Origin: Croceibacterium mercuriale
GTDB taxonomy: Bacteria; Pseudomonadota; Alphaproteobacteria; Sphingomonadales; Sphingomonadaceae
Length of the DNA: 64,000 nt
NCBI RefSeq assembly: GCF_000802385.1
Contig: NZ_JTDN01000001.1
Location: 1,433,501-1,497,500 of the forward strand
Direction: 5' to 3'
Each line of letters begins with the position of its first letter. Positions within the stretch are counted from its first letter, which is position 1. The notes below the pieces were generated by a model. It was not told where the DNA came from, ran no database searches, and worked only from the letters and a program-made list of their open reading frames with translations. The position numbers were made by a program, and so were the translations under genes. Below are positions 44,771-46,938 of the stretch, one piece after another.

Positions 44771-45337
44771 TCAGGCAGCCTTGCGCAGCTTGTCCAGCTT
44801 CTTGAGCGCCATGTTGCGCTTCAGCCGGCTGAGATGGTCGATGAACAGGATGCCGTTCAGGTGATCCATCTCGTGCTGCAGGCAGGTCGCCAGCAGCCCG
44901 TCCAGCTCCTGCTCATGGTTCGCGCCATTCAGGTCCTGCCAGCGCACGCGGCAGCGGGCGGGCCGCTCCACATCGCCGTAGATCTCCGGGATGGACAGAC
45001 AGCCTTCCTGGTAGACGCTCAGCTCCTCGCTGACCTCGACGATCTCCGGATTGATGAAGGTGAGTGGGTTCTTCTTCGTGGGGCGGTGATCGTGGCCGCA
45101 GCCGTGATCGCCGCATTCCTCGCCTTCGGCATCCGGGTCCGGCTCCTGCAGGTCGATCACCATCACCCGCACCGGCTCGCCCACCTGAATGGCGGCAAGG
45201 CCAATGCCATGCGCGTCATACATCGTCTCGAACATGTCAGCGACCAGGGTGCGCAAGCTGTCGTCGAACGCCTCCACCGGCTGGGAGACGAGCTTCAGCC
45301 GGGCGTCCGGCACTTCCACGATTTCACGAATAGCCAT
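44771..45337 (-). CDS. def: peptide deformylase with His/Cys-rich insert
   Basis: The enzyme removes the formyl group from new proteins. All three motifs are present in the 188-residue product: [10 protein letters not shown] (44 to 53), EGCLS with metal ligand Cys113, and QHEMDHL with His155 and His159. Between the first two is an extra stretch of about 24 residues with [10 protein letters not shown] (75 to 84), which is not part of the catalytic site and may bind a metal. Together with fmt, 0.7 kb away, it forms the formylation/deformylation pair. Confidence 0.95.
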
Positions 45338-45387: not shown

Positions 45388-45984
45388 CTACAGCACCGAG
45401 CGCCGGGCACGCAGCGCCTGCGCCAGCGTGCCTTCGTCCAGATAGTCGAGCTCGCCCCCGACCGGCAGGCCATGCGCCAGCTGGGTCAGGCGCACCGGCA
45501 TGCCCTCCAGCCGTTCCGCCAGGTAGTACGCGGTCGTCTGACCTTCCAGCGTGGCGTTCATGGCCAGCACCACCTCCTCGATGCCGCCGGCGGACACCCG
45601 GTCGAGCAGCTGGCCGATGCTCAGATCCTCCGGCCGGATGCCGTCCAGCGCGGACAGGCGCCCGCCCAGCACATGGTAACGGCCGGTGAACAGATGCGCG
45701 CGGTCCAGCGCCCACAGATCGGCCACATCCTCGACCACGCACAACTGGCGCGCATCGCGCCGCGGGTCGGAGCAGATGGCGCAAGGGGTGACCGTATCGA
45801 CATTGCCGCAGGTGCCGCATTCCACCAGGCTGCGGCGCATCGTCTCCAGCGCTTCGGCCAGCTGGACCAGCGCGGTTTCCCGCCGCTTGACCAGCCACAG
45901 CACGGCGCGCCGGGCGGAGCGGGGGCCGAGGCCGGGCAGCCGCGCCAATGCGCCCGCCAGCGCCTCGATCTCTTGCGATGCCAT
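45388..45984 (-). CDS. recR: recombination mediator RecR
   Basis: RecR loads RecA onto gaps with RecO. The 198-residue protein has the helix-hairpin-helix [14 protein letters not shown] near 13 to 26, a four-Cys zinc finger CGTCGN...CAIC near 56 to 70, and a TOPRIM domain with VVED and the conserved [10 protein letters not shown]. The ATG at 45984 is preferred because the frame upstream of it overlaps fmt. It is divergent from fmt by 48 bases. Confidence 0.95.
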
Positions 45985-46032
45985 CCACCGGCAGATAGGG
46001 CGCGCCACCGGCAAACGCAAAGGGGCAGGCAG

Positions 46033-46938
46033 ATGCGCATCACCTTCATGGGCACGCCCGACTTCGCGCTCCCGACGCTGGACGCGCTGGTGGAGGCCGG
46101 GCACGACGTGGTCGCAGCCTATACCCAGCCGCCCCGCCCCGCCGGGCGCGGCAAGGCCCCCCGTCCCTCACCCGTGCAGCTGCGGGCGGAGACGCTGGGT
46201 ATTCCGGTCCACTCGCCCAAAAGCCTGCGCAATCCGGAAGCTCAGGCGGACTTCGCCGCCCTGCAGCCGGAGGTTGCCGTGGTCGTCGCCTATGGCCTGA
46301 TCCTGCCACGCCCCATCCTGGACGTGCCGGCATTGGGCTGCATCAACGTGCATGGCAGCCTGCTGCCGCGCTGGCGCGGGGCCGCGCCGATCCAGCGCGC
46401 GATCCTGGCGGGCGATCCCGTGACCGGCATCACCATCATGCGCATGGCCGAAGGGCTCGACACCGGGCCGATGCTGGCGACGGCCCGCGTGCCGGTGGAG
46501 GACAAGACCAGCGGCGCGCTGTTCGCCGAACTGGCGGAGGTCGGCGCGCACCTGCTGGTGGAGGTTCTGGCCGATCACCAGCACTGGCGCCCGGAGGATC
46601 AGGACGAGCTGGGGGCGAACTACGCCGCCAAGATCGACAAGGCCGAGACGCGGCTGGACTGGACCAAGCCGGCCGAACTGCTGGAACGGGAAGTGCGCGC
46701 CTTCGCCCCTGTTCCCGGTGCCTGGTTCGAGCTTGATGGCGAGCGGATCAAGGTGCTTGGCGCGCATGTCGTGGCCAGCAATGCGGCGCCGGGCACGGTG
46801 GTGGACGATCAGCTGACGGTCGCCTGCGGCGAGGCCGCCCTGCGCCCCGCGATCGTGCAACGCGCGGGGCGCCCGGCCATGCCGGCGGCGGACTTCCTGC
46901 GCGGGCGCTCCATCCCGCAGGGCACGGTACTGCGATAG
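46033..46938 (+). CDS. fmt: methionyl-tRNA formyltransferase
   Basis: The enzyme formylates the initiator Met-tRNA using 10-formyl-THF. The 301-residue product has [12 protein letters not shown] near the start, the folate-binding [17 protein letters not shown] near 109 to 125, and the catalytic Asp in [20 protein letters not shown] precedes the ATG. It is followed by truA after 9 bases. The 10-formyl-THF could come from the formate-THF ligase encoded at 38.6 kb. Confidence 0.96.

What the first reader, a model, noticed from the sequence alone, without database searches (positions are those of the whole stretch)
44771..45337. Peptide deformylase carries a His/Cys-rich insert
Between motif 1 and motif 2 the enzyme has an extra 24 residues with [10 protein letters not shown], holding two Cys and three His in ten residues. 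The usual three catalytic metal ligands are all intact, so the insert is additional. It could bind zinc, iron or nickel, or store metal for the active site.
Basis: partly seen in the sequence, partly recalled or inferred. Interest (0 to 1): 0.55.

Follow-up and report, generated by a model that had tools for sequence, protein, structure and literature searches.

The report
Deformylase lid with metal-binding-like loop
The one enzyme found in this bacterium for trimming the formyl group off new proteins carries an extra loop rich in cysteine and histidine, kept in many relatives, which probably grips a metal ion near the enzyme's own metal centre.

Summary
On the minus strand (45337→44771) lies a 188-residue peptide deformylase with intact catalytic ligands, the only one found in its genome. 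Residues 64-93 form a 30-residue CD-loop with C75-GDHG-C80-G-H82-D-H84.

It is no strain oddity. Of 181 deformylases read from the window's family and its named near relatives, 120 have a 26-38-residue loop with 4-8 Cys/His and 61 have 0-1; none is in between. All 120 have a Cys and an HxH. Length and spacing shift, but Cys and His are the best kept loop residues between close relatives, and they exchange with each other. In the window's subtype C75, C80, H82 and H84 stay while H78 does not. A profile of the loop found no such deformylase outside the family. One Erythrobacter MAG (L061) has a 27-residue loop with no Cys/His, so the feature can be lost.

Best reading: a transition-metal site in the mobile lid of a housekeeping enzyme, helping to load or keep the catalytic ion. 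Metal binding is inferred, not shown; a structural zinc staple fits nearly as well.

The parts
44771..45337 (-). def, peptide deformylase, 188 aa, ATG at 45337
   Evidence: PF01327 187.6 bits, one match in the genome
45059..45148 (-). CD-loop (residues 64-93) between strands at 58-61 and 92-102
   Evidence: AF2 secondary structure; loop limits as used; name CD-loop after passages of PMC5071857 and PMC3101196
45077..45139 (-). insert, residues 67-87, without counterpart in P. aeruginosa PDF 1n5n
   Evidence: alignment goes from query 66 / chain 78 to query 88 / chain 79
45086..45115 (-). Cys/His cluster [10 protein letters not shown] (residues 75-84); kept in the window's subtype: C75, C80, H82, H84
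44999..45001 (-). catalytic metal ligand C113 (motif 2 EGCLS)
   Evidence: invariant in 61 sequences
44861..44875 (-). catalytic metal ligands H155 and H159 and catalytic E156 (motif 3 HEMDH)
   Evidence: invariant in 61 sequences; roles from general knowledge
45388..46104 (-). neighbouring frame upstream of def on the same strand, recR by recall of its sequence (no family search run); taken to start at an internal Met, 198 aa

Best explanation
The CD-loop, a mobile lid beside the active site of peptide deformylase, has become a transition-metal binding segment in this group of sphingomonads (named members: Novosphingobium, Erythrobacter, Qipengyuania and others). In the window's subtype the likely ligands are C75, C80, H82 and H84 (C-x4-C-x-H-x-H). 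In sister subtypes the role is filled by other arrangements (C-x-H-x2-H-x-H-x-H; C-x-H-x-H-x6-H-x-H; H-x-H-x-H-x2-H-C-x-H-x-H). The loop most likely holds a divalent ion (Zn2+ or Fe2+ most plausible) close to the catalytic C113/H155/H159 centre and helps to fill or refill it when metal is scarce or the catalytic iron is lost: a built-in metal-capture arm on the only deformylase found in the genome. Shown: the insert, its position, its conservation pattern, its clade limits by homology search, single copy, intact catalytic motifs. Inferred: metal binding. Inferred with less support: hand-over to the active site.
For: All-or-none distribution: 120 of 181 loops have 4-8 Cys/His, 61 of 181 have 0-1, none 2-3. 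120 of 120 have a Cys and an HxH; 118 of 120 contain [CH]-x-H-x-H. Length (26-38) and spacing vary while these residues stay. Over 340 close pairs, Cys/His codons have pN/pS 0.111, the rest of the loop 0.288, the rest of the protein 0.143, with CAC 307 and CAT 223 in the loops. Cys (0.88) and His (0.82) are the best kept of 13 loop residue types with 200 or more comparisons, and C/H is the second commonest exchange at such positions although it needs two base changes. Loop between strands 58-61 and 92-102, i.e. the CD-loop, described as enlarged and mobile in Leptospira PDF and as moving on actinonin binding in AtPDF. Precedent for a cis-acting His-stretch: in all but two genomes with ureG but no ureE, UreG has an added His-rich motif (PMC2770081, passage). 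The window's genome gave no PF02492 (CobW/HypB/UreG) match.
Against: No metal was measured. AF2 gives the loop modest confidence (block means 60 for residues 71-80, 73 for 81-90), and no coordinates were at hand to look for a pre-formed site. L061 lacks all loop Cys/His, and genus g64 has members with (L160) and without (L131, L133, L162) the loop, so it is not indispensable. The idea that loop-bearing genomes lack G3E metallochaperones was not borne out: strong PF02492 hits in 10 of 45 loop genomes against 14 of 35 without (Fisher p = 0.09; type A alone 7 of 36, p = 0.07), no correction for kinship; counting weak hits too, 24 of 45 against 23 of 35. Histidine-rich acidic loops can also expand by slippage. 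The gene pairs are not independent and synonymous change at the ligand codons is saturated (pS 0.895).
Confidence: 0.45

Rival explanations
1. Structural or regulatory metal staple: the loop binds one Zn2+ tightly (C-x4-C-x-H-x-H), folding the lid and fixing or gating its open/closed position; no ion is handed over.
For: Four kept ligand-type residues in the window's subtype, with Cys/His exchange as in structural zinc sites (comparison from general knowledge); the CD-loop is a moving lid.
Against: Most other subtypes have five to eight Cys/His and variable spacing, more than one fixed site needs; AF2 gives the loop no regular structure and modest confidence.
Confidence: 0.3
2. Metal sink: the loop only buffers or sequesters excess metal (Zn, Cu, Ni, Co) or shields the active-site Cys, unrelated to loading.
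For: High His density in several subtypes (C.H..HHHHH in 15 of 102 distinct type A); deformylase is likely present in every growing cell (general knowledge).
Against: A sink needs no fixed small ligand set; some species keep exactly four ligand-type residues (C....C.H.H in 7 of 102 distinct type A).
Confidence: 0.12
3. Not a metal site: a charged low-complexity loop for contact with the ribosome or another partner, or tolerated drift.
For: The loop is acidic (mean 7.8 D/E against 5.5 in the short loops), of modest confidence in the model and bare of Cys/His in L061.
Against: Cys and His are kept over the other loop residues; all-or-none distribution; two arrangements (types A and B), apart on the trees, both with Cys and HxH.
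Confidence: 0.13

Closest known systems
Short-loop bacterial peptide deformylases (PF01327), e.g. P. aeruginosa 1n5n, E. coli enzyme
   Same: Fold and motifs: Z 22.8 to 5j46, 21.8 to 1n5n; phmmer E 2.4e-47 to 1n5n.
   Different: 1n5n lacks residues 67-87 of the window's protein.
Type 2 and Leptospira deformylases with enlarged CD-loops
   Same: Insertion at the same place; mobile lid in Leptospira (passages).
   Different: No Cys/His cluster is mentioned in the passages read; their sequences were not compared here.
His-stretch G3E GTPases (UreG, HypB, COG0523)
   Same: Cis-acting His segment proposed to hold metal for a metallocentre (PMC2770081, passages).
   Different: There it sits on the chaperone; here on the enzyme itself, with no GTPase domain.
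Histidine-rich loop of ZnuA zinc-binding proteins
   Same: Flexible His-rich loop in a zinc protein (seen only as titles in a reference list).
   Different: Periplasmic transport component, not an enzyme (general knowledge).

Membership tests
Peptide deformylase (PF01327) | Pfam profile match over the whole domain | tested here: met
   187.6 bits, profile 1-155 of 156
Peptide deformylase (PF01327) | Motifs GIGLAAxQ, EGCLS and QHExDH with Cys/His/His metal ligands (motifs recalled) | tested here: met
   G44-A49 and Q51, E111-S115, Q154-E156 and D158-H159 invariant in 61 sequences
Peptide deformylase (PF01327) | Deformylase fold | tested here: met
   AF2 mean pLDDT 84.6; Z 22.8, rmsd 1.8, 165 residues to 5j46
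Peptide deformylase (PF01327) | Deformylase activity | not testable with these tools
   none
G3E/COG0523 metallochaperone | GTPase domain | tested here: not met
   Pfam finds only PF01327 in the protein
G3E/COG0523 metallochaperone | HxHxHxH stretch (x = 0-4), as defined in PMC2770081 | tested here: not met
   Only three His in the window's loop (translation); relatives such as TAHGGHHHTH do fit it
Zn-binding structural site | Four Cys/His ligands conserved together | tested here: inconclusive
   C75, C80, H82, H84 kept in the window's subtype; number and spacing change in others
Zn-binding structural site | Bound zinc | not testable with these tools
   none

The most novel reading that the evidence does not exclude
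A housekeeping enzyme of translation carries its own metallochaperone: the lid of the only deformylase found in the genome captures Fe2+ or Zn2+ and delivers it to the nearby catalytic site. The device arose within the sphingomonads, took several ligand arrangements, and was lost again in single lineages.
Probability: 0.25. Interest if true: 0.7.

Novelty: new variant of a known kind. Interest (0 to 1): 0.5.

Why it matters
How deformylase receives its labile catalytic metal in cells is, to my knowledge (recall), unsettled, and the enzyme is regarded as an antibiotic target (abstract of PMC5071857). A group of bacteria whose enzyme lid has a kept ligand set, with short-loop sisters and a natural loss (L061) for comparison, makes metal loading of this enzyme testable in harmless laboratory species.

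Tried and rejected
Composition alone as proof: a crude scan of 55 greedy ORFs of the window found one with 5 Cys/His in ten residues and none other above 4, but that one is the antisense frame over def, chosen in place of def. It is not a fair base rate; I rely on conservation.

Replacement of an external chaperone: 80 genomes were searched for PF02492, 36 type A, 9 type B, 35 without the loop. Strong hits (E below 1e-15): 7 of 36, 3 of 9, 14 of 35; not significant (tables typed by hand) and not corrected for kinship. With weak hits (47 of 80 genomes at E 0.001): 18 of 36, 6 of 9, 23 of 35.

The same trait in methionine aminopeptidase-like genes: four M24 loci in the genome, at most 4 Cys/His in ten residues.

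Origin of types A and B: the deformylase tree without the loop columns (FastTree, 14 of 172 inner branches starred) needs 8 changes for the three states; a tree of recR+fmt+truA (106 rows, only 2 of type B, truA in 60, quick search) needs 5. In the latter two short-loop rows on long branches (L130, L132) and L061 lie in a set of 47 that holds 44 type A rows, and two type A rows (L100, L112) lie among short-loop rows. Gains against losses are not settled; no outgroup was in these trees.

Rows dropped: L086 (cut at a contig end) gave no loop, so 181 of 182 loci (L001-L182); L001 and L082 are both the window; 175 distinct proteins. The loci were chosen (80 best hits, hits listed, 44 genomes), so 120 of 181 is not a frequency. 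One search failed on a script error and was replaced.

Outside the family: of 50 loci (30 best Pfam matches, 20 picked partly for long matches), 49 gave a deformylase segment; one (L211) is a family member with the loop, the other 48 have none. Of 39 of these whose loop could be cut out, 21 have 11 residues. L215 was flagged only because its whole segment was read; its loop holds one His. The 387 and 397 genomes overlap and include family members (6 and 21 listed with a match); these searches score at most 18 first-look candidates a genome, so they can miss. 20 weaker loci (L245-L264) were looked at: 16 deformylases without the cluster, 4 loci without a deformylase. PDB entries 3u04 and 3oca match over 1-184 in one stretch, so they may have long loops; their residues were not looked at.

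In print: 'peptide deformylase' with 'histidine-rich' (4 papers), with 'insertion' and 'CD loop' (none), with four further terms on insertion, loop, active site and iron (16 papers), with 'CD-loop' (2 papers): no title or abstract start describes this loop. One search (genus names, two of four terms) listed 25 of 1,356 papers, none of the 25 holding 'peptide deformylase', so it says little. Most subscription papers are not held.

Full report
The finding is real. The reverse strand of 44771-45337 encodes a 188-residue peptide deformylase (PF01327, 187.6 bits), the only match in a 3.48-Mb genome scored 100% complete. Upstream on the same strand lies a recR frame; fmt and truA lie on the other strand (these three names are recalled from their sequences, no family search was run). 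Of 141 loci of 2.5 kb or more, matches were found for recR in 122, fmt in 114 and truA in 61, many loci being too short to hold all. Catalytic ligands C113, H155 and H159 are invariant in an alignment of 61 sequences.

The unusual part is the segment between the strands at 58-61 and 92-102 in the AF2 model (mean pLDDT 84.6; block means 60 for residues 71-80 and 73 for 81-90). This is the place of the CD-loop, described as the loop connecting strands 2 and 3 and as insertion 3 of type 2 enzymes (PMC5071857, passages), as enlarged and mobile, with a proposed equilibrium of open and closed forms, in the Leptospira enzyme, and as part of what closes when actinonin binds AtPDF (PMC3101196, passages). 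Against the P. aeruginosa enzyme, residues 67-87 are extra. They hold C75-G-D-H78-G-C80-G-H82-D-H84.

Relatives show that it is a group trait. From 182 loci of the window's family and its named near relatives I read 181 deformylases (L086 was cut off), 175 distinct. 120 have a loop of 26-38 residues (median 30) with 4-8 Cys/His, 61 have a loop of 15-28 (median 16) with 0-1, and nothing lies between. All 120 have at least one Cys and an HxH; 118 of 120 have [CH]-x-H-x-H; all 181 keep the catalytic motifs. Type A (102 distinct, among them Novosphingobium, Erythrobacter, Qipengyuania, Croceicoccus, Aurantiacibacter and the window's genus) has a Cys first: C.H..H.H.H (26), C.H..HHHHH (15), C..H..HHH.H (14), C.H.H......H.H (9), C..H.C.H.H (8), C....C.H.H (7) and rarer forms. 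Type B (15 distinct) has the form EHDHEHGEHC[DN]H[DE]H with small changes. The window's subtype keeps C-x4-C-x-H-x-H; its middle His is D, S, E or G in others.

Selection acts on the ligand-type residues. In 340 pairs among 99 close genes with equal loop length, pN/pS is 0.111 at Cys/His codons, 0.288 at other loop codons and 0.143 in the rest of the protein; synonymous change at the Cys/His codons is saturated (pS 0.895), and the loops of 117 distinct genes hold CAC 307 and CAT 223 times. The pairs are not independent. In 336 pairs a Cys is kept in 0.88 and a His in 0.82 of comparisons, more than any of the eleven other residue types with 200 or more comparisons. Among pairs of at least 80% identity outside the loop, C/H is the second commonest change at such positions (315 pair counts, after D/H with 535), although it needs two base changes. 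Keeping ligand chemistry while order and spacing change is what metal binding would leave; this last step is inference.

Limits of the trait. A profile of the loop matched 8 of 387 alphaproteobacterial genomes at E 0.001 or better: five strong matches and one to the flank in the family, and two outside (L188, L190), which have long Gly-Asp or acidic loops without Cys/His. In 397 Pseudomonadota genomes the nine strong matches (86 bits or more) all lie in the family; the best outside is 21 bits, and 20 loci below the nine hold 16 deformylases without the cluster and 4 loci without a deformylase. Of 49 deformylases read from 50 further alphaproteobacterial loci, the 48 outside the family lack it. 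So the loop without Cys/His is probably ancestral. Within the family the trait comes and goes: an Erythrobacter MAG (L061) in a starred clade with other Erythrobacter rows has a 27-residue loop without Cys/His where these have 30 or 34, and genus g64 has both states (L160 with; L131, L133, L162 without). The number of gains is open.

Mechanism. Most likely the lid binds a divalent metal near the catalytic centre and aids its filling or retention. The His-stretch of UreG, suggested to make up for a missing UreE (PMC2770081, passages), is a precedent for a cis-acting metal segment. The window's genome gave no PF02492 GTPase (13 and 12 of 14 control genomes ring), but the comparison across 80 genomes is not significant: strong hits in 10 of 45 with the loop against 14 of 35 without, Fisher p = 0.09. 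A tight structural zinc staple fits the window's four kept residues about as well; the five to eight of most other subtypes argue against one fixed site. Nothing here shows metal bound.

Verdict: a true, group-wide variant of a known enzyme, probably a metal-binding lid, with no description seen in the listings of the paper searches.

Noticed in passing
window's whole genome G000: No match to PF02492 (CobW/HypB/UreG GTPases) in a genome scored 100% complete, while 13 of 14 control genomes in that search had one (again none).
   Followed up: partly
L188 (unnamed alphaproteobacterium, family f42): Deformylase CD-loop with a run of Gly-Asp repeats (NGDGDGDGDGDGDGG) instead of Cys/His; perhaps repeat expansion or a calcium-type loop.
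   Followed up: no
L221, L222, L223, L190 (family f15): Long acidic CD-loops (26-27 residues in L221-L223) without Cys/His outside the window's family, so enlarged CD-loops seem to have arisen more than once in Alphaproteobacteria.
   Followed up: no
L061: Erythrobacter MAG among loop-bearing relatives whose 27-residue loop has no Cys or His; a natural comparison.
   Followed up: partly
G014, G019, G025, G037, G138, G241: Six of 298 family genomes (at least 90% complete) gave no deformylase match; perhaps assembly gaps.
   Followed up: no
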